From positions 1 through 10,523 of the forward strand of contig JACQVC010000451.1 of the NCBI GenBank assembly GCA_016209995.1: DNA of 10,523 nt. Reading direction: 5' to 3'. A model generated the notes under the pieces. It saw nothing but the letters and a program-made list of their open reading frames with translations, searched no databases and was not told the DNA's origin. Shown here piece after piece: positions 1 to 10,523 of this stretch. The position numbers and the translations under genes are program-made. Origin of the DNA: Gemmatimonadota bacterium (GTDB taxonomy: Bacteria; Gemmatimonadota; Gemmatimonadetes; Longimicrobiales; Gaopeijiaceae). Every line of letters begins with the position of its first letter. Positions within the stretch are counted from its first letter, which is position 1.

Positions 1-894
1 CTCCCAGCGCTCCGCCTCCTGCTCCACCTGAGGACGCCAGCGGTCCTCGTTCACGACCTCGGCGAGCGTCGTCGAGATATCGGCGAGGAACGAGGCGAAT
101 TCGGCGTCCGTCGCGGCGGACGCCCGGCGCTGGGCGGCCTTGCCGCCCACGATCGCTTCCGCCTCGGCCTGCGAGACGAGTCGGTCCTCCAGCTCCTGCA
201 CGGCCAGGATGCGGTTGAGCCCGCCCATCAGCTCGCGCACGTTCCCGAACGACGCTCGCGCGATGACCTCCGCTACCTCGGCCGCCAGCTTGGCGCCGCG
301 CTCCTCCACCTTGCGCAGCACGATGGCGACCCTGGTCTCGTACTCGGGCGTCGCGATGTCGACGATGAGCCCGCCGGAAAAGCGCGACAGCAGCCGGTCA
401 TCGAGATCGTCGATCTCTCCGGGCGGCCGGTCGCTGGCCAGCACGATCTGACCACCGCCGGCGCTGATCGCGTCGAAGCTGCGCAGCAGCATCTCCTGCG
501 CTTCCCGGCGTTTCGCGAGGAACTGAACGTCATCGATGAGGAGGAGGTCGAGCCGCTGGTAGCGCTCGAGCAGTCCATCGCGGTCGCCGGCGCTCAGCGC
601 CGCCTCGAGCTCGTCCAGGTAGCTTTCGACCGGCTGGTAGAGCGTGTGTAGCTCGGCGTGCCGCTGGCGCGCGTGATGCGCCATCGCCTCCAGGATGTGA
701 GTCTTGCCGAGACCCGAGGCCGCGTAGATGAAAAGCGGATTGTAGCTCGCGCCGGGGGCATCCGCGGCTCGTCGCGCCGCGGCGCACGCCAGCCGGTTGG
801 CGGGGCCGACCACATAGGAGTCGAAGGTAAAGTTGCGGTCGGACTCGCTGCGCCGGGAAGAGCGGCGATCGGCAGCCGGAGATTGAGGCGCCAT
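1..894 (-). CDS. DnaA-like AAA+ ATPase (partial, 3' end outside window)
   Basis: An open frame of 298 codons runs off the left edge without a stop. It starts with ATG at 894-892, sharing one base with the mglA stop (TGATG), and has a GGAG nine bases upstream at 907-904. Only about 20 residues precede the DnaA signature NFTFDSYVVGPANR (residues 21-34), so DnaA domains I and II are absent. The AAA+ core is well conserved: Walker A ASGLGKTH (59-66), Walker B LLLIDDVQFL (117-126), sensor 1 ASDRPP (153-158), box VII RLLSRF with the arginine-finger candidate R171, and sensor 2 NVREL (R220). After residue about 250 the sequence does not resemble DnaA domain IV; it is acidic, probably helical, and Trp-containing. 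DnaA/Hda-family identity is secure from the motifs. A role in replication is not, because its partners here are chemosensory and polarity genes. It could be an effector or localisation ATPase for MglA. Confidence 0.85.
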   Translation of the reverse strand, partial: MAPQSPAADRRSSRRSESDRNFTFDSYVVGPANRLACAAARRAADAPGASYNPLFIYAASGLGKTHILEAMAHHARQRHAELHTLYQPVESYLDELEAALSAGDRDGLLERYQRLDLLLIDDVQFLAKRREAQEMLLRSFDAISAGGGQIVLASDRPPGEIDDLDDRLLSRFSGGLIVDIATPEYETRVAIVLRKVEERGAKLAAEVAEVIARASFGNVRELMGGLNRILAVQELEDRLVSQAEAEAIVGGKAAQRRASAATDAEFASFLADISTTLAEVVNEDRWRPQVEQEAERWE

Positions 895-1505
895 CAGCCG
901 GCGCTCCGAGACACACCACCCACCCGCTTCTCGAGCCGCCGCAGCACCAGCTCACTGATCGCGCGCAGCGTGTCGAAGACGCCCAGGCCCGTTACGGCGC
1001 TCGCCTCAAAGCTGGGAACTCCGCGGAAATTGAGCTGCTCCTCCAACAGCGCCACGGGCAGAACGTCCGGGAGGTCCCGCTTGTTGTACTGGAATACGAG
1101 CGGCACGGTGCGGATGTCCATCTCCTGCTCCAACAAATTCTCGTGCAGGTTGCGGAGGCTTTCCATATTCTCCCCCGCCTGGCGGCGCTGGCTGTCCGCC
1201 ACGAATACCACGCCATCCGCGCCCTGAAGCACGAGCTTGCGCGTCGCGTTGTAGTACACCTGACCCGGCACCGTGTACAGCTGGAAGCGCGTGCGGAACC
1301 CGGAGATCTTCCCCAGCTCGAGGGGGAGAAAGTCGAAGAACAGCGTCCGGTCCATCTCCGTCGCCAGGGAAACCATCTGTCCCTTGCGATCCTCCGGCAC
1401 CTGCGCGTGCACGTACTGGAGGTTCGTCGTCTTGCCGGAGCGTCCAGGCCCGTAATAGACGATCTTACAAACGATCTCGCGTGACGAGTAGCTGACTAGG
1501 GGCAT
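894..1505 (-). CDS. mglA: MglA-type Ras-like GTPase
   Basis: This 203-residue small GTPase closely resembles Myxococcus MglA, which is about 195 residues. Visible motifs are the P-loop GPGRSGKTT (19-27), the intrinsic arginine finger in EMDRTLFFDF (R53), the MglA hallmark TVPGQ (78-82) in place of the usual DxxGQ, with catalytic Q82, the base-specificity motif NKRD (141-144), and a G5-like loop ASAVTGLGVFDTL (168-180). In characterised systems GTP-bound MglA marks the leading pole and MglB is its GAP; that is family knowledge. A short basic tail (LRRLEKRVGG) extends past the last helix. The ATG at 1505-1503 follows an AGGGA Shine-Dalgarno (1513-1509) that overlaps the stop codon of the upstream mglB-like gene, so the two are probably translated together. 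The stop overlaps the DnaA-like start by one base. All key GTPase residues are intact, so it is probably an active switch. Confidence 0.95.
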   Translation of the reverse strand: MPLVSYSSREIVCKIVYYGPGRSGKTTNLQYVHAQVPEDRKGQMVSLATEMDRTLFFDFLPLELGKISGFRTRFQLYTVPGQVYYNATRKLVLQGADGVVFVADSQRRQAGENMESLRNLHENLLEQEMDIRTVPLVFQYNKRDLPDVLPVALLEEQLNFRGVPSFEASAVTGLGVFDTLRAISELVLRRLEKRVGGVSRSAG

Positions 1506-1508
1506 AGT

Positions 1509-1513
1509 TCCCT
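1509..1513 (-). promoter_or_regulatory. Ribosome binding site of mglA overlapping the mglB stop
   Basis: AGGGA overlaps the TAG that ends the mglB-like gene and sits three bases before the mglA ATG. The arrangement suits termination-reinitiation coupling of the GAP and its GTPase. Confidence 0.6.
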
Positions 1514-1988
1514 AAGCGGACCCGAACAGGCGGTCCAGGCTATCCATCAGGTCCCGCTCGAACGCTTCGTCCTGGGGCGGCGCCGCCTCCTTCCAACCCG
1601 GCAGCTCGGCCACTTCTTGGGCGAACTCCTCGAAGAAGACGCGCACCAGCCCGAGCGATGACTCTGCATCGAAAACCGCGAGGAGCAGCAGCTCCTCGGC
1701 CGGCGTCGCGAAGCGGCCCAGGAAGAGCTGACGCTCCGCGCCCTTGTGATGGAGATGCGCGAAGCTGCGCTCGCCCACCACCCTGGCCAGCTCTCCCGAC
1801 GAGGAATGGATCCCGGCGGCGAGGGCGGCGGTTCCCATGACGTCGACCGCGCGCGTGAAGCCGCGTTGTGCGACGACCTGGCCCGCCCGGTTCAGCAGCA
1901 ACGCCAGCCGGACTCGCGCCTCCCGCACGAAACGATCCAGGCTTCCGGCGAGCGCTTCGGAGTGCTGGTTGATATCGAGGCGTTGCAT
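1512..1988 (-). CDS. mglB: MglB-type roadblock/LC7 protein, probable MglA GAP
   Basis: This 158-residue protein matches the known MglB length of about 159. It has the roadblock alpha/beta plan. RLALLLNRAGQVVAQRG (27-43) gives the first strands, then comes a central helix with ALAAGIHSSSGELARVVGE, then HHKGAERQLFLG, and the closing segment AVFDAESSLGLVRVFFEEF. This order and the aspartate/serine loop before LGLVR recall Myxococcus MglB. The C-terminal acidic helix (FERDLMDSLDRLFG) also mirrors the end of MglB. In the family, an MglB dimer binds MglA and stimulates GTP hydrolysis. The ATG at 1988-1986 is preceded by an in-frame TAG 12 bases upstream, which fixes the start. No Shine-Dalgarno is well placed (a GGAG lies 18 bases off), so translation may depend on ribosomes leaving the roadblock gene that ends 26 bases earlier. 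The stop lies six bases from mglA. Confidence 0.87.
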   Translation of the reverse strand: MQRLDINQHSEALAGSLDRFVREARVRLALLLNRAGQVVAQRGFTRAVDVMGTAALAAGIHSSSGELARVVGERSFAHLHHKGAERQLFLGRFATPAEELLLLAVFDAESSLGLVRVFFEEFAQEVAELPGWKEAAPPQDEAFERDLMDSLDRLFGSA

Positions 1989-2014
1989 GTCAGCGATCTG
2001 CTAGCGCTCCAGCA

Positions 2015-2368
2015 CTAGACGGCTGCGAGTTCCTGCGCCAAGCGGGCGACCTCCGTGCGCACCAATCCGATATTCGCATCCTCATCCGTCACGACGACCA
2101 CGAGCAACGGGCCGGCCGCAGCGGCGAACACGTTGCCACGCTGGGCCTGCAGCTGCAGCGATCGCAGCTCGCGGAATCGCGCCGCCTCGGCGGACCGCGA
2201 GGCTCGCCGAAACAATTGGGCCGTGAGTGCCGCCGCGATCGGGACGCGGATGTGCTCCATCGCGTCCGCCTCGACCGGAATGCCATCCTCGCGATCCACG
2301 AGGATCGCACCCTGGACCCCGGGAATACGGTTGAGGCGGCCGACTGCGTCGCGGAAATCCGTGCTCAT
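2015..2368 (-). CDS. Stand-alone roadblock/LC7 domain protein
   Basis: This single-domain protein of 117 residues has the roadblock fold pattern: an N-terminal helix (DFRDAVGRLNRIPGVQG), a strand pair AILVDREDGIPVEA, a long Ala-rich helix (43-64), strand LRSLQLQAQRGNVFAAAA, strand GPLLVVVVTDEDANIGLVR, and a last helix. Such proteins dimerise and bind Ras-like GTPases as GAPs, exchange-type regulators or adaptors. Here the partner is likely MglA, encoded two genes downstream. It is distinct in sequence from the MglB-type neighbour, lacks that protein's acidic C-terminal tail, and could form a heterodimer with it or with the roadblock end of the preceding gene. The ATG at 2368-2366 overlaps the preceding stop by four bases (ATGA) with only a weak GGTGA upstream, so it is probably translationally coupled. 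Its exact biochemical role cannot be told from sequence. Confidence 0.87.
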   Translation of the reverse strand: MSTDFRDAVGRLNRIPGVQGAILVDREDGIPVEADAMEHIRVPIAAALTAQLFRRASRSAEAARFRELRSLQLQAQRGNVFAAAAGPLLVVVVTDEDANIGLVRTEVARLAQELAAV

Positions 2369-3285
2369 CCGCGGTCACCGGCGAGGAAGGCGGCAGCCGC
2401 GTCGCGGGCGTCACCGGCCACGCGGCGCAGCCAGCCCAGGGGGCTACGGCCTTCGCCCGCCACCAACAGAAGCGCGTCCCCCACGGGCTGCAGATATGCT
2501 TTCACATCTTCGGTCTCCAGGAGAATCCCTTCCCATCCCCCGATATCGAGGTGCGCGGCGGTCCGGGTCGCCTCGTCGATGGCGCCGCTCAAGATCGAGG
2601 CCACGGCTTCGGCGCTCTCGAGTCCGGAGTCGCTCATGCGGCCGGCCAGCAGCAGGCCATCGGAGTCGAGAAGCACGATGCCGCGCAGCCCGGGCGTCTC
2701 CACCAGGGTCGCGAACAGACTCTCGGGCCCGAGCCGCGGGCCAGCCGTCGTCGCACGCGGCGTCGACGTGGCTGCCGCAGCCCGCCCCGTGCTCTCCGGC
2801 ACAGGACGGACGCGCTGAGTGCTCGCGGCCTGCGCGGCCGACTCCTGCTTTGGCGCAAGCTGCTGCGCCGTGCCCAGCTGACCGCGCGCCAGGGCCAACG
2901 CTTCCCGCACCGTCTGGTCGTCGCGTCGCAGCTCGGCCGCCTTGCTGAGGTGACGAACCGCGTCCGCCAGCGCGCCCCGCTCCAGGTAGCCGAACCCCAA
3001 GCCGCGGCGGGTCTCGAAGTGCTCCGGATCCAGCTTGCTGATCAGGAGCCACTCGTCGAACGCCTTCTCCTTGTCTTTTCGGCTCAAGTAGATGCGAGCC
3101 AAACCCGCGTGCGCTTCCACATTCGACGGATGTCGCTCCAACCCACGCAGGCATACCCGGAGCGCCTCATCGTCGCGACCCTGACGCCGGTAAGCTTCCG
3201 CCAGCGGGATGAACGCCAGCGACCCCGCGTCACGGGCCACCTCCTCGCTCCAGCGCCGGAGATCCTCCGCCGAGGCCTGCTTCAT
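2365..3285 (-). CDS. TPR-roadblock fusion protein
   Basis: This is a 306-residue two-part protein. Residues about 22-140 form three or four TPR motifs (for example LAFIPLAEAYRRQGRDDEAL, then AGLARIYLSRKDKEKAF and RGLGFGYLERGALADAV, each followed by an L/HP-like turn). Residues about 141-185 are a low-complexity linker rich in Ala, Gln, Thr and Pro. Residues about 186-300 form a roadblock/LC7 domain: SLFATLVETPGLRGIVLLDS, then DGLLLAG, a helix, GILLETEDVKAYLQPVGDALLLVAG, and a final helix. A likely role is tethering a roadblock GTPase regulator to a TPR-bound partner, joining the sensory scaffold to MglA; this is inference from architecture. The ATG at 3285-3283 overlaps the preceding stop by four bases, and GAGGAG lies about 11 bases upstream inside that gene. 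The 3' end overlaps the next roadblock gene by four bases. Confidence 0.87.
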   Translation of the reverse strand: MKQASAEDLRRWSEEVARDAGSLAFIPLAEAYRRQGRDDEALRVCLRGLERHPSNVEAHAGLARIYLSRKDKEKAFDEWLLISKLDPEHFETRRGLGFGYLERGALADAVRHLSKAAELRRDDQTVREALALARGQLGTAQQLAPKQESAAQAASTQRVRPVPESTGRAAAATSTPRATTAGPRLGPESLFATLVETPGLRGIVLLDSDGLLLAGRMSDSGLESAEAVASILSGAIDEATRTAAHLDIGGWEGILLETEDVKAYLQPVGDALLLVAGEGRSPLGWLRRVAGDARDAAAAFLAGDRG

Positions 3286-4430
3286 ACGAGTGTATTCTCC
3301 TCACGCGTGAGCTCGGCCTCGAGGACTCGCGCGGCGGCCACGACGCGCGCCACGCGCGAATCATCCGAACGGTCGCCGCCGGTGAGCCGCAGACAGTTCG
3401 TCCACGCTTCGACCGCCCGCTTCAACTCGCCGGCCTGCACGGCGGAGAATCCGAGCCTGCGGTGCGCCTCGGCGGACAGAGGATCCAGCTCGACCGCTCG
3501 ACTGAACGCCTCGAGCGCCGCCCGAAAGCGGTGCTCGGCCATATAGACCCGCCCGGAGAGCAGAAAGATCTCGGGATCACGGGCCGCATTTTGCTGCAGC
3601 TCGTCCAGGAGCATCCGCGCGCGCGCCGGCTTCCCTTCCGCGAGAAGCTGCCTCGCTTCCGCCAGCGTTCGATCGTACGCGTCCGGGGGAGCGTCCCCGG
3701 CCCTGGGCGCATCGAGAATCTCGACGATGCCCGTCGTGACCAGCCCGAAGACGGTCTTGGCCACGTCGAATTCGCTCACGCCGAGCGTCGTGGCGATCTC
3801 CATCAGGTTGCGGCGTCCATCGATCTCCGCCAGCACTTCCCACTCCCCCGGCCGCAGATCCACGACCGGCGCACCTCGCCCCTCGTCATGCGATGCCAAC
3901 GCCGGCACGACGCGCGCGTCCGGAATCTTCTGAGCGAGCGTGGTCCATTCGTCGACCCGGCGCGCCGACTCCATGAGCAGCGATTCCGTACGGATGCGTA
4001 CCACGGTGCGTGGACCCGCGACCTCCTGCTCCGCGAACGTGAAGTACCCCTCATCCCACTTCAGCAGAGAGAACACGGTCTCCTCGATCTGGAAGCGAAG
4101 TCCTTCCTGCAGGTCTTCCGTGGCGACGCTTCCCATCTCGACGAGGATGTCGCCGAACTTTCGCTCCGGCTGCTCGACCTGGATCTCGCGCGCCCGCCGC
4201 AGCTCCGCCTCCGTCACCTTCCCCGCCCGCAGCATGATGTTGCCGATGCGGGGCGTCGGGTCTTCTCCCTTCTTCGACGCGCCCACCACCTGCCCGCGAT
4301 CGAAAAACACGACACCGGTCTCACCCGGGCGCTTCGACACCAGCGTGAGCATCCCCGTCTTGCGAGAGAGGTCGAGCAACTGGAACACATCGTGCGTGCT
4401 CAGCTCCGACAAGGGTCCTTCAATGGCCAC
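3282..4430 (-). CDS. DUF4388 (PATAN-like) and TPR protein
   Basis: This 382-residue protein begins with a DUF4388/PATAN-type domain. Residues 1-52 show the family pattern: PLSELSTHDVFQLLDLSRKT, then GMLTL, then GVVFFDRGQVVGA. It is followed by a helical GspE-N-like stretch (60-135) with two repeated units, RIGNIMLRAGKVTEAEL and KFGDILVEMGSVATEDL, ending in WDEGYFTF. Residues about 195-240 look like a small winged-helix unit (WEVLAEIDGRRNLMEIATTLG, then VSEFDVAKTVFGLVTTGIVEIL). Residues 250-345 hold TPR motifs. PATAN-type domains occur in signalling proteins such as cyanobacterial PatA and are thought to mediate contacts with two-component or chemosensory proteins, so an adaptor role fits here. 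It starts with GTG at 4430-4428, supported by a strong GAGGAGAG ten bases upstream in a 30-base gap. The 3' end overlaps the TPR-roadblock gene by four bases (ATGA). Confidence 0.85.
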   Translation of the reverse strand: MAIEGPLSELSTHDVFQLLDLSRKTGMLTLVSKRPGETGVVFFDRGQVVGASKKGEDPTPRIGNIMLRAGKVTEAELRRAREIQVEQPERKFGDILVEMGSVATEDLQEGLRFQIEETVFSLLKWDEGYFTFAEQEVAGPRTVVRIRTESLLMESARRVDEWTTLAQKIPDARVVPALASHDEGRGAPVVDLRPGEWEVLAEIDGRRNLMEIATTLGVSEFDVAKTVFGLVTTGIVEILDAPRAGDAPPDAYDRTLAEARQLLAEGKPARARMLLDELQQNAARDPEIFLLSGRVYMAEHRFRAALEAFSRAVELDPLSAEAHRRLGFSAVQAGELKRAVEAWTNCLRLTGGDRSDDSRVARVVAAARVLEAELTREENTLV

Positions 4431-4440
4431 GCCCTGGACT

Positions 4441-4446
4441 CTCCTC
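4441..4446 (-). promoter_or_regulatory. Ribosome binding site of the DUF4388 gene
   Basis: GAGGAG (extended to GAGGAGAG) lies ten bases before the GTG at 4430. It decides this non-ATG start and lies inside the 30-base gap after the TPR gene. Confidence 0.65.
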
Positions 4447-4460
4447 AGGAGTTTTTCGCA

Positions 4461-7187
4461 CTACCCACGGACGAACTCACGCGTCAGCTCCGCCGCCTGC
4501 TCGATGTGCTGGCGCGCGCGGGCGCCGATCTCGCCATGCGGCTGGACTTCGCAGGCGGCCGACCAGTATTCCACGGCTTCGCGCACGTGTTTCTGCGCGG
4601 CCAGCACGTCGCCGAGACCGAGGAGCGCCGCGGGCCGCTCGGCGTCGAAGCGAAGCACTCGCCGGAACGCCACCTCCGCATCCGCCGGCCGCGATGCTGC
4701 CGCCAGCACCTCGCCCAGCCGAGTCAGCGCGACCAGGTCGTAAGGATCCAGCTCGAGCAGATCGGCCAGCGCGCGGACCGCCTGATCCGGCTGCCCGCAA
4801 GAGACGTACAGGTCCGCCAGTACCAGGACGGCGTAGGAATAACTGGGCAGCAGCTCGACGGCCTGCGTGCACTCCCGGATCGCCTCCTCGGAGCGACCCA
4901 GCGCGGCCAGCGCCCGAGCCAGGTCCACGCGTGCGCCCGCGTGCTCCGGGTCCTGCGCCAGCGCCTTGCGCAACGCGCGCTCGGCCATGACGTGCTCACT
5001 CGCTCCCAGGCTGACACGGCCGAGCTGGCGCAGTACGGCTGCGTTCTCGGGCGCCATGCGTTGAGCCCTCGCCATCGCGGCGAGCGCGTCCCTCATCGCA
5101 CCCGCGCGTGCCAGAATCTCACCGACCGTCATGAGCTCGTCGATCGTGGCACCCTCCCGCAGCAGCCACTCCGCGGCCTGCCTGGCGTCGGCGAGCCGAC
5201 CGAGGGCCAACAGCGCGCGTGCGCGCGCGTGCTGCGCGCGGCCGACACGCTCGTCTTGCTCGTCCATCCGCACGAGCGCCGCATCCAGCCGTTCGAGCGC
5301 CTCGCCCGCGAGCCCCTGCGCCAGGAAGATGTCGCCGATCAGGAGCGCGGAGTCGACGGGATTCGCGCCGGCGGCGACCGCTCGGCGCACTTCGACCGTC
5401 GCCCGCTCGAGCAAGCCCTTGGTGAAGTAGTCGCGCGCCAGAGCCAGGGCATCACCTCGCTCGGCGGCCGCCTTGGGCTCACTCGTTCGTTCCGCAGTGC
5501 GGAGGTCCGCGAACACGGAGTCGAGCTGCGCGCGGTCGAAGTCGAACGCCTCGACTCCCTGCTCGCCGACATCGACGCCCTGGTCCAGCTCGGGCGCCAG
5601 CACCTCGCCGTGCTCGAACTGCACATCGATCGTCAGCCGGAAGCGCGGCCCGTCGTAGCGGGGCGCGAGCGCCAGTGCCGCCTTCGTTTCACGCAGCGCG
5701 CCCTCGTGATCTCCGAGCCGTGACAGCGCGAACGACAGGTTGTAGCGGGCCGCCGCGAAGTCGGGATTGGCGTCGACGGCACGGGCAAAGGCGTTGCGCG
5801 CCTCCTCGTGGCGCCCCAGCTCGGCGAGCACGAGGCCCACGCCGTTCCACACCGCATCCTCGGCGCGACGCGACTCCAGCGCCTCGCGGAAGACCTCGAG
5901 GGCCTCGACGTGCCGGCGACTTCGCAGCAGCAGCAGTCCGAGATTCAGCCGCGGCTCGGAGATCTGCGCAGCCCAGTCCATCGCCTGGCGAAACGCGTCG
6001 GCCGCGGCCCGCGTGTCGCCCGCGTGCGCGCGCGCTACACCGACGTTGTTCAGGGCGAGCGCGTACGTCCCTTCCAGCTCGAGAGCCCGGCGGTAGCAGC
6101 GTTCGGCCTCGCCGATCTCACCCAGAAGGTGAATCGCGACACCCAGCTCGTTCCACAGCTTCGGGCTGTCACCCAGCTCTCCGACCAGGTCACGATACAG
6201 CTCGCCCGCCTCGCGACTGCGACCCTGCAGCAAGTGCGTTTCGGCTATGGCGGGTCGGACCAGCGCGGAATCCTCGCCGTGCTCCGCGGCCATCTCGAAC
6301 TCGCGCAGCGCCTCGTCGTACAGTCCGCGCTGGCGGAACGCGAGCCCGAGGTTGTAATGGGCAAACGGCCGGGTCCGATCCACCTCCGGCGCCGCGTCCC
6401 GCTCGCCGACCAGCTCGCGATACCGCGCCGTGTTGTACCGGTCGAGAGAGAGGCTCGCTTCCGCGCGCCCCAGATGCGGGTTCAGCTCGACGGCTCGCCT
6501 CGCTGCCGCCATGCCCTTTTCCGGCTCGCCGCGGTCCCCGTACACGAAGCCGATCAGGTAGTGGGCTTCCGCCAGCTCGGGATTCAGCTCGATGGCCTTC
6601 TCCAACGAGACGAGCGCATCCCGGCTGAGCCCACGATTGTAGAGCAGCTCGCCGATCGTGAAGTGGATCACCGCGCTGTTCGAGTCGAGCGCTAGCGTGC
6701 GCTCGTAATAGCGCAGCGCGGCATCGAGATCCCCGCGCTCCCGTTCCGCCTCGCCCAGCTGGAGCAGCGTCTCCAGGTCCTCGCCTTTCCGCTCCAGGAT
6801 GCGCGTCAGCTCCGCGGAGGCTCGCTCCGGGTCGCCCGTACGCAGGAAGACCTGGGCGAGCCGGCGCCGCGCCTGCACGTCATCGGGGTGGCGGGCCAGG
6901 CGGGCCTCGAGAGCTTGGATGATCTGCTGGTAATAGCCGGTGTGGAAGTACGCGATCTCGAGGTTACGCCGCGCCACCTGCATACGCGGATCGATCTCGA
7001 GGGCCCGCTCGAACTCGGCGATCGCTTCCGCGTACAGCTTCTTGTTGAAGTAGAGGACGCCGAGGTTGTTGTGCGCACCGGAGTCCCCCGGATCGATCCG
7101 CAGAGCGAGTCCGCGCAGGATCTCGAGGTCGCGCTCGGAGTGAGGTGCGCTTCCGGTTGCGGAGGGCGAGCGCGGGGCCCGGGTCAC
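4461..7187 (-). CDS. Large tetratricopeptide-repeat scaffold protein
   Basis: At 908 residues this is the largest gene in the window and is almost entirely TPR. About 14 recognisable repeats run from residue 35 to 515 (for example AHNNLGVLYFNKKLYAEAIAEF at 38-59, and later AHYNLGLAFRQRGLYDEALREF). A non-TPR, acidic segment follows at about 516-580, rich in Asp, Glu, Val and Phe. A second block of about nine repeats spans 580-895. There is no signal peptide, membrane segment or catalytic domain, so a cytoplasmic protein-protein scaffold is most likely; partners are not known. The GTG start at 7187-7185 shares four bases with the cheC stop (GTGA). No clear Shine-Dalgarno is visible, so expression probably depends on cheC translation. 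The long high-scoring frames on the opposite strand here are artefacts of its biased codon use. Confidence 0.88.
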   Translation of the reverse strand: MTRAPRSPSATGSAPHSERDLEILRGLALRIDPGDSGAHNNLGVLYFNKKLYAEAIAEFERALEIDPRMQVARRNLEIAYFHTGYYQQIIQALEARLARHPDDVQARRRLAQVFLRTGDPERASAELTRILERKGEDLETLLQLGEAERERGDLDAALRYYERTLALDSNSAVIHFTIGELLYNRGLSRDALVSLEKAIELNPELAEAHYLIGFVYGDRGEPEKGMAAARRAVELNPHLGRAEASLSLDRYNTARYRELVGERDAAPEVDRTRPFAHYNLGLAFRQRGLYDEALREFEMAAEHGEDSALVRPAIAETHLLQGRSREAGELYRDLVGELGDSPKLWNELGVAIHLLGEIGEAERCYRRALELEGTYALALNNVGVARAHAGDTRAAADAFRQAMDWAAQISEPRLNLGLLLLRSRRHVEALEVFREALESRRAEDAVWNGVGLVLAELGRHEEARNAFARAVDANPDFAAARYNLSFALSRLGDHEGALRETKAALALAPRYDGPRFRLTIDVQFEHGEVLAPELDQGVDVGEQGVEAFDFDRAQLDSVFADLRTAERTSEPKAAAERGDALALARDYFTKGLLERATVEVRRAVAAGANPVDSALLIGDIFLAQGLAGEALERLDAALVRMDEQDERVGRAQHARARALLALGRLADARQAAEWLLREGATIDELMTVGEILARAGAMRDALAAMARAQRMAPENAAVLRQLGRVSLGASEHVMAERALRKALAQDPEHAGARVDLARALAALGRSEEAIRECTQAVELLPSYSYAVLVLADLYVSCGQPDQAVRALADLLELDPYDLVALTRLGEVLAAASRPADAEVAFRRVLRFDAERPAALLGLGDVLAAQKHVREAVEYWSAACEVQPHGEIGARARQHIEQAAELTREFVRG

Positions 7188-7801
7188 GCGAGGCGAATGG
7201 CTTGGAGGATGGCCATGAGCGCCGGTGCGTCGGGCAGAAACAGGAACTCCCCGCCCATGTCGCCAACCGAGTCGTTCACCTCGAACATGTTCTCGATGCA
7301 GAAGACGAGCCGATCGCCATCCGGCAGGTTGAAGGCACCGGGGTTCCCCACCGCGCCGGCCAGGTCGAGGGTCAGCAGCGGAACCGAGGGCAAGAGCATC
7401 ATGCCCAGGAATTCGGAGAGCGCATTGAGGTAGGCTCCGCCGAGGATGTTGCCGGTCTCCTTGAGCGCCGACTGCTCCATCTCACCCAGCGTGGCCGTCG
7501 TGCCGAGCGGCTGCCCCATGAAGCAGTCGATCAGCCGCTTGGCGACGCTGTGCGTCAGCACCAGCAGCACCCTTCCGGTCAAGTCTCCGAAGACGTTCAT
7601 CACGACGGCCGTGGTCTGGCCGTCCGGGGGCACGAGTCCCGGAATGTCCTCGAACCGCCCCAGGTGGATCTCCGGAACCCGGACCATGACCTTGCGCTGC
7701 GTGAGCTGAGACAGCGCAGTCGCCGCGTGACCGGCCCCGATGTTCGCGACCTCCCGCAGTGCATCCAGCTCCCGCGCCTTGAACTCCTTTGTCGGTCCCA
7801 T
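7184..7801 (-). CDS. cheC: CheC-family CheY-P phosphatase, class I
   Basis: This 205-residue protein has two complete CheC phosphatase motifs of the form [D/S]xxxExxN(x22)P. The first uses D13, E17, N20 and P43; the second uses S111, E115, N118 and P141, each with exactly 22 residues between Asn and Pro. Two intact sites and a length near 200 define a class I CheC. CheC removes phosphate from CheY-P, and in several bacteria its activity is raised by CheD; no cheD lies in this window. A CheX or FliY identity is less likely, because CheX has one motif and FliY carries a flagellar switch domain. The ATG at 7801-7799 follows a modest GAGAGA about nine bases upstream, in the 29-base gap after cheA. 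The stop overlaps the TPR gene start by four bases. It probably sets the signal lifetime of the CheY encoded two genes upstream. Confidence 0.93.
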   Translation of the reverse strand: MGPTKEFKARELDALREVANIGAGHAATALSQLTQRKVMVRVPEIHLGRFEDIPGLVPPDGQTTAVVMNVFGDLTGRVLLVLTHSVAKRLIDCFMGQPLGTTATLGEMEQSALKETGNILGGAYLNALSEFLGMMLLPSVPLLTLDLAGAVGNPGAFNLPDGDRLVFCIENMFEVNDSVGDMGGEFLFLPDAPALMAILQAIRLA

Positions 7802-7830
7802 GGGGCTTCTCTCGTTGCAGCGTGCGTCGC

Positions 7831-9735
7831 TCAGGAGGCTGCCACTGACGCCAGGTTCGCGGGATCCAGGATGAGGGCGGGCCGCCCGTCGGCCAGAATG
7901 GTCGCACCCGAGAAGAAGGGAGGCGCCCCGCGCGTCGCCTGGAAGGATTTCACGACGATTTCCTGCTCTTCGACGACCTCATCCGCAATCAAGGCCACGC
8001 GGCTGTTGCCCAGGTCGACCACCGCCGCGATCGGCTGAGGTGGCTCCGGCTTCGCCGGCGTCTGCAGGATCTTGCGCAAGCGCAGCACGCGCACCGGCTT
8101 CTGTCCGATGGCGGCCACCTCGTCGCCGTCGGCTCCCGACAACATGCTCGCGTCCAGCGGCAGCGTCTCGCCGATCATCATTCCGGGGATCGCATACACC
8201 TCGCCGGCCACGCGCACCAGGAGCGCACGGGTGATGGCCAGCGTCAGCGGCAGCCGAATCGTGACCCGCGTGCCCACGCCCTCCTCGCTGTGAATCTCGA
8301 AGTTGCCCGCCAACGCGCGCACCCGCGTTGCCAGCACATCCATCCCTACTCCCCGGCCTGACAGGCTCGTGACGCGCTCCGCCGTCGAGAATCCCGTGCG
8401 AAGAACCAGCCGGATGATGTCGTCAACGCCCAGACTTTCGGCTTCAGCCAGCTCGATGATGCCGCTCTGCAAGGCCTTTTCGACCACGCGCGCCCGGATG
8501 ATGCCCCTCCCGTCATCCTGGACCGTGATCACGACGCTGTCACCCTGCCGCGCGGCCGCAAGAAGGATGCGGCCGACGCGCGGCTTGCCACTCGCTTCGC
8601 GCTCGTGCGGCGGCTCGATCCCGTGGTCCACGGCGTTGCGCAGCAGGTGCACCAGCGGATCGACGATCTCGTCCAATACTGAGCGGTCCAGCCCGATCTC
8701 CTGCCCCTCGACCACCAGCTCGACCTCCTTCTCCAGCGTGCGGGCGGCATCGCGCACCAGGCGAGGGAATCGGTCGAACACCTGCCACACCGGCACCATG
8801 CGCGCCTTGAGAATCTCGTCCTGCAACGCGCTGATCAGGCGATACGCCCGCGCGCTCAGCTGTAGCAGCTCACCCGTGGGGTGCTCGCGCGCCGCCCGGC
8901 GCAACCAGCTACGCAGCACGACCAGCTCGCCGATCTGATCTTGCAGCGCGTCCAGCCTCGAGATGTCCACTCGGATAGAGCTGACGCGGCCACGCAGCGG
9001 ACGCGCATCCACGGGCGTGGAGTCCGGCGTCGCCACGGCAGCCTCCTCGGCTACCTCCAGGAAATCGACCTGTGCGCCCTCGCCGGCATCCACCAGCGTG
9101 GCGCGGACGTGATCGCGGTCGATCCCCGGCGTGAATCTCAGAAAGAAGACGCCCGGGAAGTCGGGCTCCTGAAACGCGGCCACCGGAGGATGGCATTCAG
9201 CCAGCTGGCCGCCCTGCTCCGCCGCCCTCACCACCAGGAACGACCGTGCACCTTTGAGGGGCGCATCGTCAGGCAGCCGCACGCGAGCCCAAAGACCCGG
9301 TACCGCGGGGGGTTGCACCTCCCGCGCTGACACGGTGGCCGCCTCTTCTGGCGCGGATCCGTCCAGGTACTGTTGCAACCGCGCGAGATAAGGACCGCTG
9401 TCGCACGGCTCCGCGCGCTCGCCCGCCGCATGAGCCACCGACATTTCCAGGGCGTCGGCTCCAGCCAGCAGCACATCGACCAGACCGGGGTCGGCCCGCC
9501 GACGACCGGAGCGGAGCTGGTCGAGCAAGTTCTCGACCTCGTGGGCCAGACCGCTCATCGCGGTGTAGCCCATCGTCGCGGCCATGCCTTTGATGGTGTG
9601 CACGGAGCGGAACAGGCCGTCCAGCGCCTGTCGGTTGTCCGGCCGCGATTCCAGCTCGAGGATCAGCTCGTTCATCGCCGAGAGATGCTCGCGTGTCTCG
9701 GTGAAGAACAGCTCGGCGTAGCGTTCCAGCTCCAT
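7831..9735 (-). CDS. cheA: Chemosensory histidine kinase CheA
   Basis: This 634-residue CheA has the classical five-domain order. P1/Hpt spans residues 1-125, with the phosphorylated histidine H46 in SVHTIKGMAATMG. A ferredoxin-like, probably CheY-binding P2 lies at about 148-228. The P3 dimerisation helices are at 252-315 (VDISRLDALQDQIGELVVLR). The P4 HATPase spans about 318-495, with N box HLLRNAVDHGIE (363-374), G1 DDGRGI (407-412), F box TGFSTA (447-452) and G2 GRGVGMDV (460-467). P5/CheW-like runs from about 498 to 630. All catalytic residues are present, so it should be active. It would pass phosphate to the CheY encoded just upstream. The ATG at 9735-9733 has AAGGAG three bases before it. 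The 127-base leader may hold regulatory sequence. No response-regulator domain is fused to it, unlike Frz-type CheAY. Confidence 0.96.
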   Translation of the reverse strand: MELERYAELFFTETREHLSAMNELILELESRPDNRQALDGLFRSVHTIKGMAATMGYTAMSGLAHEVENLLDQLRSGRRRADPGLVDVLLAGADALEMSVAHAAGERAEPCDSGPYLARLQQYLDGSAPEEAATVSAREVQPPAVPGLWARVRLPDDAPLKGARSFLVVRAAEQGGQLAECHPPVAAFQEPDFPGVFFLRFTPGIDRDHVRATLVDAGEGAQVDFLEVAEEAAVATPDSTPVDARPLRGRVSSIRVDISRLDALQDQIGELVVLRSWLRRAAREHPTGELLQLSARAYRLISALQDEILKARMVPVWQVFDRFPRLVRDAARTLEKEVELVVEGQEIGLDRSVLDEIVDPLVHLLRNAVDHGIEPPHEREASGKPRVGRILLAAARQGDSVVITVQDDGRGIIRARVVEKALQSGIIELAEAESLGVDDIIRLVLRTGFSTAERVTSLSGRGVGMDVLATRVRALAGNFEIHSEEGVGTRVTIRLPLTLAITRALLVRVAGEVYAIPGMMIGETLPLDASMLSGADGDEVAAIGQKPVRVLRLRKILQTPAKPEPPQPIAAVVDLGNSRVALIADEVVEEQEIVVKSFQATRGAPPFFSGATILADGRPALILDPANLASVAAS

Positions 9736-9738
9736 GGT

Positions 9739-9744
9739 CTCCTT
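9739..9744 (-). promoter_or_regulatory. Ribosome binding site of cheA
   Basis: AAGGAG lies three bases before the cheA ATG at 9735 and fixes that start. The next in-frame ATG lies at codon 21, inside the conserved Hpt helix. Confidence 0.7.
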
Positions 9745-9755
9745 CAGAGGTTCAA

Positions 9756-9810
9756 TGGCTCAGATCAAGCAACCCAGCCACCTACAGCTGCACCCTTGAG
9801 GGTTGAGCCA
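9756..9810 (-). promoter_or_regulatory. Possible imperfect stem in the cheA leader
   Basis: In the 127-base gap between cheY and cheA, TGGCTCA (9756-9762) and CAACCC (9770-9775) can both pair with GGGTTGAGCCA (9800-9810). A nearer ACCC (9792-9795) competes for GGGT (9800-9803) through a four-base hairpin. The structure ends about 11 bases upstream of the cheA Shine-Dalgarno. No run of T follows, so an intrinsic terminator is unlikely. This is a visual pairing only and may be chance. Confidence 0.3.
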
Positions 9811-9835
9811 CTACGTCGTCGGTGCGCTAGATGCA

Positions 9836-9859
9836 GATCCTCTGATCCTCTGATCGTCT
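9836..9859. repeat. Three tandem 8-base repeats with GATC cores
   Basis: GATCCTCT, GATCCTCT and GATCGTCT follow each other exactly, beginning three bases after the cheY stop codon. Two copies are identical and the third differs by one base. They could be a short regulator site, a methylation-sensitive site or simple slippage; the sequence alone does not decide. Confidence 0.6.
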
Positions 9860-9862
9860 CCC

Positions 9863-10225
9863 TCACCTCAGCGCCCGTTGCACCGCCTCCAGCACCCGCG
9901 ACGGTTGGAACGGCTTGACGACGAAGTCTCGCGCGCCGGCCTGAATCGCCTCCATCACGAGGGCCTGCTGGCCCATGGCGCTGCACATCAGCACACGGGC
10001 CTCGGGAAACTCCTTGGTGATGGCCTTCACCGCGTCGATCCCGCCCATGTCCGGCATCACGATATCCATGGTCACGAGATCGGGCTTGAGTTCGCGGTAC
10101 TTTTCGATGGCTTGGGAACCCGTCTCCGCTTCGCCCACCACCTCGAACCCCGCTCCCTTCAAGATGTTGGCGATCATGGTGCGCATGAATAGCGCGTCAT
10201 CGCAGATCAGTACGGTCCGCCCCAT
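9863..10225 (-). CDS. cheY: CheY-like single-domain response regulator
   Basis: This 120-residue receiver has no output domain. The acidic pocket D9-D10, phosphoacceptor D54 (in VTMDIVMPDMGG), S82 (in LMCSAM) and K104 (in FVVKPF) are all in place, so phosphorylation by CheA is expected. It is the same size as enteric CheY, about 120-130 residues. What it binds is not known: a flagellar motor, type IV pilus machinery, or an adaptor such as the TPR/PATAN proteins downstream are all possible, and no flagellar gene is present here. It starts with ATG at 10225-10223, preceded by a strong GGAGGG at 10234-10229. It is set off from cheW by 88 bases and from cheA by 127 bases, the widest gaps in the cluster, so its expression may be tuned separately. 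Confidence 0.95.
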   Translation of the reverse strand: MGRTVLICDDALFMRTMIANILKGAGFEVVGEAETGSQAIEKYRELKPDLVTMDIVMPDMGGIDAVKAITKEFPEARVLMCSAMGQQALVMEAIQAGARDFVVKPFQPSRVLEAVQRALR

Positions 10226-10228
10226 GGT

Positions 10229-10234
10229 CCCTCC
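10229..10234 (-). promoter_or_regulatory. Ribosome binding site of cheY
   Basis: GGAGGG on the minus strand lies three bases before the cheY ATG. It is the best Shine-Dalgarno match in the window and supports high translation of cheY. Confidence 0.75.
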
Positions 10235-10273
10235 AACCAGGTTTGACAGGTAGCTCCCACACCACCCCCCTCC

Positions 10274-10296
10274 CCTTCGCTGACCTTCGCTTCGCT
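10274..10296. repeat. Three short CTTCGCT direct repeats between cheW and cheY
   Basis: CCTTCGCT occurs at 10274-10281 and 10284-10291, ten bases apart, and CTTCGCT recurs at 10290-10296. They lie about 50 bases upstream of cheY. The roughly one-helical-turn spacing of the first two could suit a protein binding site, but the repeats are short and may be chance. No recognisable sigma-70 promoter is visible in the gap. Confidence 0.45.
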
Positions 10297-10313
10297 ACGG
10301 TTCAACCCCTTAC

Positions 10314-10523
10314 TCAGCCGAACCATTCGGCCAGAAGCTCGGGCACGTGGATAACTGTGTACTCGTGACTGCCGGTCTTGATCTCTCCCACCCCACTCAC
10401 GGCCAACCCCACCGCGCGCCCATCTTTTTCCAACACCACGACCCGGTGCCCCGGCGATGAAGAGCTGCGTCCCAGCCCCAGCGCTGCCCCTAGATCCAGA
10501 ACCGTGAGCACACGACTTCGGAC
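10314..10523 (-). CDS. cheW: CheW-like coupling protein (partial, 5' end outside window)
   Basis: The last 69 codons of a CheW-domain protein enter from the right edge; full CheW proteins are usually 150-170 residues, so roughly half is missing. The visible part has the C-terminal CheW pattern: RVLTVLDLGAALGL (the usual V.V.DL..LG motif), then HRVVVLEKDGRAVGLAVSGVGEI, then the ending YTVIHVPELLAEWFG. CheW links receptors to the CheA kinase. There is no sign of a kinase part, and CheA is encoded separately, so stand-alone CheW is most likely. A CheV-type CheW-REC fusion is ruled out because the frame stops right after the CheW domain. An N-terminal fusion cannot be excluded since the start is not in view. 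Confidence 0.88.
   Translation of the reverse strand, partial: VRSRVLTVLDLGAALGLGRSSSSPGHRVVVLEKDGRAVGLAVSGVGEIKTGSHEYTVIHVPELLAEWFG

What the first reader, a model, noticed from the sequence alone, without database searches (positions are those of the whole stretch)
1..10523. Chemosensory core fused in one operon with an MglA/MglB polarity switch and a DnaA-like ATPase
cheW-cheY-cheA-cheC is followed without a break by three TPR adaptors, two roadblock proteins, mglA and a DnaA-family ATPase. In Myxococcus, Frz chemosensory signalling controls MglA/MglB polarity, but those genes are encoded apart and linked by other proteins. Here the whole candidate path from kinase to GTPase is physically linked and tightly coupled. 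The TPR, PATAN and roadblock proteins are natural candidates for the missing link between CheY-P and MglA. The seen part is the gene order and motifs; the pathway is inference.
Basis: partly seen in the sequence, partly recalled or inferred. Interest (0 to 1): 0.78.

Follow-up and report, generated by a model that had tools for sequence, protein, structure and literature searches.

The report
Chemosensory operon built around MglA switch
In many Gemmatimonadota bacteria, the genes for a chemotaxis-type sensor and for a Ras-like cell-polarity switch sit together in one conserved gene string that probably steers pilus-driven crawling, which makes an old question about how sensing sets a cell's direction easier to test.

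Summary
Eleven same-strand genes: cheW (cut), cheY, cheA, cheC, a 908-aa TPR protein, PATAN/DUF4388-TPR, TPR-Roadblock, Roadblock, MglB, MglA, and a DnaA-like ATPase (cut). Another contig of the same genome overlaps the window by 33 bp and continues into a second PATAN-TPR gene. In relatives cheR-cheD-cheB-cheW often follow, so the MglA module lies inside a che gene string. Of 61 Gemmatimonadota genomes, 36 have both CheA and MglA: within 9 kb in 27, split by contig ends inside the cluster in 6, unlinked in 3. FliG was not found in 21 of these 33; PilT was found in all 33, but also in 58 of 61 overall. In 14 other loci (9 labelled Zixibacteria) the same TPR-Roadblock, Roadblock, MglA and MglB genes run into pilB. 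The PATAN insertion is related to the MshEN region of PilB. I read this as a one-locus chemosensory to MglA to type IV pilus pathway. Linkage is shown; the signal path is inference. Against a strict CheY-P to MglA chain: some genomes keep the MglA module without cheA, and two keep che without the module. New variant of a known kind.

The parts
10314..10523 (-). cheW, 3' part only (5' end cut by the contig end)
   Evidence: PF01584, 34.3 bits, cut-off 23.5; the last 30 bases match no other contig of the genome
9863..10225 (-). cheY, single receiver domain, Asp54 present
   Evidence: PF00072 106 bits; D54 counted by me in the translation
7831..9735 (-). cheA: Hpt, P2, dimerisation, ATPase and CheW-like domains, no receiver domain
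7184..7801 (-). cheC, CheY-P phosphatase family
   Evidence: PF04509 74.4 bits; solved CheC 1xkr E 8.5e-26
4461..7187 (-). 908-aa TPR protein; overlaps cheC by 4 bp; SgmX-like in size and repeat type only
   Evidence: many TPR families; gap -4
3282..4430 (-). PATAN/DUF4388 domain with MshEN-like helical insertion, then TPR (PATAN1)
   Evidence: PF14332 114 bits; NF053729 36.4 bits, just under cut-off 38; PilF 5.4e-6, MshE 0.045; model pLDDT 89.6
2365..3285 (-). TPR repeats plus Roadblock/LC7 domain
   Evidence: PF03259 53.6 bits
2015..2368 (-). small Roadblock/LC7 protein (117 aa)
   Evidence: PF03259 35.2 bits; best PDB Roadblock proteins E 7.1e-6 and 8.3e-6
1512..1988 (-). mglB, Roadblock GTPase-activating protein candidate
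   Evidence: MglB 6izw E 2.6e-15; NF052242 47.8 bits, under its equivalog cut-off of 200
894..1505 (-). mglA, Ras-like GTPase
   Evidence: MglA 5ymx E 7.1e-77, ungapped over residues 2-196
1..894 (-). DnaA-like AAA+ ATPase, first part; continues in contig C466 (L119:1-900)
   Evidence: PF00308 166.9 bits; 33-bp overlap; second half PF00308 84.2 bits

Best explanation
The locus is one co-expressed signalling unit that ties a chemosensory core to an MglA/MglB polarity switch acting on type IV pili. Proposed chain: a receptor encoded elsewhere activates CheA through CheW; CheA phosphorylates CheY; CheC removes the phosphate. CheY-P, directly or through the 908-aa TPR protein or the DnaA-like ATPase, shifts the nucleotide state or polar place of MglA, which MglB and the other Roadblock proteins also control. 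MglA-GTP, with the TPR and PATAN proteins as effectors, sets where PilB-driven pili extend, and so the direction of twitching. The MshEN-like insertion in the PATAN proteins would add c-di-GMP as a second input. Shown: gene content, order, tight spacing, conservation, domain homology and the pil-linked relatives. Inferred: co-transcription, every protein contact, the direction of signalling, c-di-GMP binding and the pilus output.
For: Linkage in 27 of 36 genomes with both genes, 6 more split by contig ends in fitting order, 3 exceptions. 31 of 80 MglA loci carry a cheA, cheC, cheR, cheD or cheB hit, and no locus mixes strands among the cluster genes. The cheC/TPR gap is at most 13 bp in 36 of 36 adjacent pairs and the DnaA-like/PATAN2 gap at most 28 bp in 40 of 40, by longest-ORF starts, which make gaps look small; a genome may count twice. 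In 14 loci the TPR-Roadblock, Roadblock, mglA, mglB set (with PATAN in 13) runs into pilB, with pilT and pilC in 10; L038's PilB and PilT pass curated cut-offs. L081 has pilT, one other gene, then mglA, DnaA-like, PATAN2, cheR, cheD, cheB. FliG was not found in 21 of 33 linked or split genomes, 18 of those 21 with a single CheA at E <= 1e-40; MCP in 32 of 33. The PATAN2 insertion matches PilB and MshE N-termini. CheA and MglA distances correlate beyond the flanking gene rluD (partial r 0.61, 0 of 2000 permutations, 25 loci). From papers, passages only: MglA-GTP acts on pili through a TPR protein in M. xanthus (PMC7519303); PATAN mediates PilB binding in Synechocystis (PMC10519157).
Against: cheA can be absent while the MglA module stays: G048 (no che hit at the locus), G050 and L025 (cheY kept), L016 (a cheW kept), G018 (che fragments and cheY). 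The module can go while che stays: G019 and G021, both FliG positive; G014 shows no mglA or DnaA-like hit between mglB and PATAN2. G050 has the module but no PilT, CheA or MCP hit. PilT is nearly universal (58 of 61), so its presence says little. 12 of 33 have FliG, so a flagellar role is not excluded there. 49 of the 80 MglA loci show none of the five che profiles, though several are short contigs and the profiles were built on Gemmatimonadota. My pil profiles hit no che-type Gemmatimonadota locus. In the window's own family, 8 of 8 other sampled genomes have no CheA at E <= 1e-40. No protein contact was tested.
Confidence: 0.6

Rival explanations
1. Parallel inputs: che and MglA modules are co-expressed because both act on the same pilus machine, but CheY-P does not act on MglA. 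CheY-P would meet the PATAN/TPR proteins or PilB directly, as PATAN regulators do in cyanobacteria.
For: Independent loss of either half; MglA set found with pilB and no che hit; PATAN-PilB binding in print (PMC10519157 and PMC7690835, passages).
Against: Che genes flank the module on both sides in many relatives (20 of 80 loci have cheA/C and cheR/D/B around the DnaA-like gene), and the junctions are tight.
Confidence: 0.25
2. Flagellar chemotaxis operon with the MglA genes as passengers.
For: 12 of 33 linked or split genomes have FliG; in G019 and G021, both FliG positive, che remains without the module.
Against: 21 of 33 have no FliG match, and 18 of those have only this CheA at E <= 1e-40.
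Confidence: 0.05
3. Not motility: the system links sensing to replication, cell cycle or gene expression through the DnaA-like ATPase.
For: The ATPase region is clearly of the DnaA family.
Against: No DNA-binding domain IV match in the full-length homologue L018 (654 aa) or in the second half of the own protein. A separate, higher-scoring DnaA-family gene (open frames 474-545 aa) exists in the 9 other Gemmatimonadota genomes searched; none such was seen in the incomplete own genome or in the L081 genome.
Confidence: 0.1

Closest known systems
Myxococcus xanthus Frz - RomR - MglA/MglB - SgmX pathway
   Same: Chemosensory kinase, MglA/MglB and a large TPR protein. The three best PDB sequences for the window MglA are annotated Mutual gliding-motility protein MglA (that they are from M. 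xanthus is recalled).
   Different: There mglA is not near the genes of its partners (PMC4316618, passage). Here CheA carries no receiver domain, CheY is separate, CheC is present, and no RomR- or FrzZ-like gene is seen in the window.
Cyanobacterial Tax/Pix systems with PATAN regulators acting on PilB
   Same: Chemosensory genes plus PATAN; pilus output.
   Different: There PATAN is joined to a receiver domain (PMC7690835, PMC9090330, passages); here PATAN is joined to TPR and lies with MglA.
Actinobacterial conservon (CvnA-D)
   Same: Kinase, Roadblock and MglA-family GTPase in one operon.
   Different: [quoted passage not shown] here CheA, CheY and CheC.
PATAN, TPR-Roadblock, Roadblock, MglA, MglB, pilB loci (9 of 14 labelled Zixibacteria)
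   Same: The same five proteins in nearly the same order.
   Different: No che or DnaA-like hit, extra genes between, and mglA before mglB.

Membership tests
MglA (Ras-like GTPase) | Full-length similarity to solved MglA, with P-loop, PGQ and NKxD motifs (motifs recalled) | tested here: met
   ungapped over residues 2-196; assignment to group 1 was not tested
MglB (MglA GAP) | Roadblock domain and similarity to solved MglB | tested here: met
   the NCBIfam equivalog cut-off is not reached (47.8 against 200)
MglB (MglA GAP) | GAP activity on MglA | not testable with these tools
   needs an assay
Frz chemosensory system | CheA fused to a receiver domain (FrzE, recalled) | tested here: not met
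   no receiver domain in the 634-aa CheA
Frz chemosensory system | Works through RomR to MglA | not tested
   RomR was not searched for in the genome
Conservon | CvnA-type kinase and CvnC family protein (DUF742, recalled) in the operon | tested here: not met
   kinase is a CheA; no DUF742 among the families listed for the window proteins (one search left out the 908-aa TPR protein)
PATAN domain (DUF4388) | Pfam PF14332 above cut-off | tested here: met
   114 bits, cut-off 25
MshEN c-di-GMP receptor domain | NF053729 above curated cut-off | tested here: inconclusive
   PATAN1 of the window 36.4 of 38; PATAN1 of L018 38.3 and of L004 no match; PATAN2 of L004, L018, L081 56.7, 51.8, 56.8; own PATAN2 52.0. 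The L038 PilB itself scores only 29.2
MshEN c-di-GMP receptor domain | Binds c-di-GMP | not testable with these tools
   needs a binding assay
DnaA replication initiator | DNA-binding domain IV after the ATPase domain | tested here: not met
   no Bac_DnaA_C match in L018 654 aa nor in L119:1-900, at E <= 0.001
SgmX | Orthology to M. xanthus SgmX | not tested
   the SgmX sequence was not fetched; likeness is size and TPR content only

The most novel reading that the evidence does not exclude
A whole front-rear polarity circuit (CheA kinase, CheC phosphatase, MglA/MglB, TPR and PATAN effectors carrying a PilB-type c-di-GMP module, and a DnaA-derived AAA+ ATPase turned into a polarity part) is inherited as one cassette in Gemmatimonadota, so that phosphate, GTP and c-di-GMP signals meet on the pilus motor at one locus.
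Probability: 0.35. Interest if true: 0.82.

Novelty: new variant of a known kind. Interest (0 to 1): 0.64.

Why it matters
How a chemosensory kinase acts on a Ras-like polarity switch is studied mainly in Myxococcus, where mglA is apart from the genes of its partners. A compact locus, with natural losses of each half across a phylum, lets the order of action be worked out by genetics and by comparison. It also names parts not described in the papers I saw (the DnaA-like ATPase, the PATAN-MshEN proteins) and points to surface motility control in Gemmatimonadota, for which one search (four terms together) listed no paper in the library held here.

Tried and rejected
Chance linkage was rejected by the 61-genome count. 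A split by promoter or terminator was not seen, but that scan is weak here. Foldseek with both PATAN models and VIA-align with the first showed TPR proteins, or proteins with TPR-like helical repeats, in the 50 rows displayed each, so the fold search does not test the PATAN/MshEN part; that claim rests on sequence. The DUF4388 figures of the distance test are unusable, because the script may pick PATAN1 in one locus and PATAN2 in another (that test used 25 loci, leaving out loci without all five genes, with a CheA score of 200 or less, or with duplicate sequences). The MglA tree (100 rows, 17 loci skipped as duplicates, fragments or off-target) clusters the locus types (10 changes, shuffled mean 44.4) but does not make the che type one clade; long branches (L081, L090-L092) leave its root unsure. 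Paper searches listed no paper that by title and abstract describes such a locus; this covers only the open library held here, and only listings and some passages were seen. The second MglB-MglA pair of the genome (L117) could be its main polarity pair; this is not excluded.
Full report
Observation. Six-frame reading and Pfam/NCBIfam scans give eleven minus-strand genes: cheW (cut), cheY, cheA, cheC, TPR908, PATAN1 (DUF4388-TPR), TPR-Roadblock, Roadblock, mglB, mglA, DnaA-like (cut). Gaps run from -4 to 127 bp. No sigma-70-like promoter was found; five terminator-like sites against 3.4 expected, the two on the minus strand inside genes. CheA has no receiver domain; CheY keeps D54 (my count); CheC matches solved CheC 1xkr. 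MglA aligns without gaps to solved MglA 5ymx over residues 2-196. The 8 PDB sequences matching the 158-aa Roadblock protein are all MglB.

Own genome. The window is contig C410 of a 3.0 Mb, 76% complete assembly. Contig C466 starts with the last 33 bases of the DnaA-like gene in the window, in frame, and carries its second half, PATAN2-TPR (541 aa) and a Peptidase_MA_2 gene. My cheR, cheD and cheB profiles found nothing on C466, unlike in many relatives; the rest of the genome was not searched for them. The genome shows two CheW-domain hits, both in the window, one MCP with GAF domains, one PilT hit and no FliG_C hit, and a second mglB-mglA pair. Eight of eight other sampled genomes of its family have no CheA at E <= 1e-40, so within that family the locus is rare or mostly lost. 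Misplacement of the contig is possible, but the MCP and the second MglA lie on other contigs.

Relatives. One search returned 80 MglA loci, the best 80 of 561 confirmed in a capped list. Profiles built from the window and close hits give: DnaA-like with cheA/C and cheR/D/B 20; with cheA/C only 3; with cheR/D/B only 7; DnaA-like without these che genes 5; cheR/D/B without a DnaA-like; pil genes and no DnaA-like or che gene 15; none of these 29. Many loci are cut by contig ends, so absences are unsure. No locus mixes strands among the cluster genes. In L004 the string is rluD, cheW, cheY, cheA, cheC, TPR, PATAN1, TPR-Roadblock, Roadblock, mglB, mglA, DnaA-like, PATAN2, cheR, cheD, cheB, cheW, TPR.

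Phylum sample. In 61 Gemmatimonadota genomes (60 drawn at 90% completeness or more, plus the own one), CheA (E <= 1e-40) is in 39, MglA (E <= 1e-30) in 45, both in 36. In 27 of 36 they lie 4.9 to 8.3 kb apart. In 6 (G024, G031, G036, G038, G039, G049) the che-side contig stops and the mgl-side contig starts inside the cluster. Three are real exceptions: G019 and G021 have che without the MglA module, with a 60-aa ORF in its place that matches the DnaA-like profile weakly (26 bits); G014 shows no mglA or DnaA-like hit between mglB and PATAN2. Of the 33, MCP is present in 32, PilT in 33 (58 of 61 overall), FliG_C in 12. G048 and G050 keep the MglA module at the same place without cheA (a cheY remains in G050); G018 keeps it with fragmentary che genes; L016 (a cheW left) and L025 (a cheY left) look alike.

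Link to pili. In 14 of 80 loci, 9 of them labelled Zixibacteria, TPR-Roadblock, Roadblock, mglA and mglB are followed by pilB, and in 10 by pilT and pilC; the other four end early; PATAN is seen in 13, L044 starting too late. Only L038 was checked with curated models: PilB 700.8 of 675.65, PilT 505.1 of 319.1, PilC best 477.6 under its cut-off of 700. In L081 (labelled Cloacimonadota) pilT (462.8 of 319.1) lies one gene before mglA, DnaA-like, PATAN2, cheR, cheD, cheB. The PATAN2 insertion matches the N-terminal region of PilB, PilF and MshE and passes the curated MshE-type c-di-GMP motif cut-off in four of four PATAN2 proteins scanned. PATAN1 is near the cut-off in two of three (36.4 and 38.3 of 38) and without a match in the third. 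As a caution, the PilB of L038 scores 29.2, under that cut-off.

DnaA-like protein. The first half aligns with solved DnaA over residues 21-241. The full-length relative L018 carries two matches to the DnaA ATPase domain and no domain IV match. A separate, higher-scoring DnaA-family gene was found in each of the 9 other Gemmatimonadota genomes searched; in the incomplete own genome and in the L081 genome no such match appeared.

Co-evolution. In 25 loci with all genes, CheA and MglA distances correlate (0.735) and do so beyond the flanking gene rluD (partial 0.61; 0 of 2000 permutations). This is supportive only: CheA correlates as much or more with rluD (0.831) and with the DnaA-like gene (0.862), and fast lineages may weigh heavily.

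Reading. The best reading is a chemosensory to MglA to pilus unit. The linkage I take as certain; the output on pili is likely from the pil-linked relatives, from the lack of a FliG hit in most, and from papers on SgmX and PATAN (PMC7519303, PMC11580455, PMC10519157, PMC7690835, PMC9090330; passages only). Whether CheY-P acts on MglA or meets it at the pilus motor is open. PMC4316618 (passages) notes PATAN near some MglA genes and that mglA is not near its partners' genes in Myxococcus; a term search of its main text found no DnaA or DUF4388. [quoted passage not shown] The listings of searches showed no paper on such a locus.

Noticed in passing
L117 (G000:C137), 3830-5308: Second mglB-mglA pair of the same genome, next to genes that look like housekeeping genes by eye; 36 of the 45 MglA-positive genomes have two or more MglA hits.
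   Followed up: partly
L119:966-1475 and window 3936-4430: The helical insertion of the PATAN domain is related to the MshEN region of PilB and MshE.
   Followed up: partly
L081:6456-15390: pilT, one more gene (a biotin carboxylase by eye), mglA, DnaA-like, PATAN2, cheR, cheD, cheB in a row in a bin labelled Cloacimonadota; transfer or misbinning is possible.
   Followed up: no
L095 (G018:C86): Locus with full-length cheY but fragmentary cheW, cheC and cheB and no cheA hit, as if che were decaying around a kept MglA module.
   Followed up: partly
L100, L101 (G021, G019): che gene string without the MglA module, with a 60-aa weak DnaA-like match (26 bits), in genomes with FliG.
   Followed up: partly
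L119:2629-3597: A Peptidase_MA_2 family gene follows the string in the own genome, and relatives of it follow in many loci; role unknown.
   Followed up: no
L090, L091, L092 (G010, G042, G028): Divergent version: short TPR protein (about 380 aa), MglA only 40-43% identical to the window's, no cheR, cheD or cheB hit downstream.
   Followed up: no
L038:9992-11134: MglA with a long low-complexity C-terminal extension ending in basic residues; ORFs of similar length occur in other pil-linked loci.
   Followed up: no
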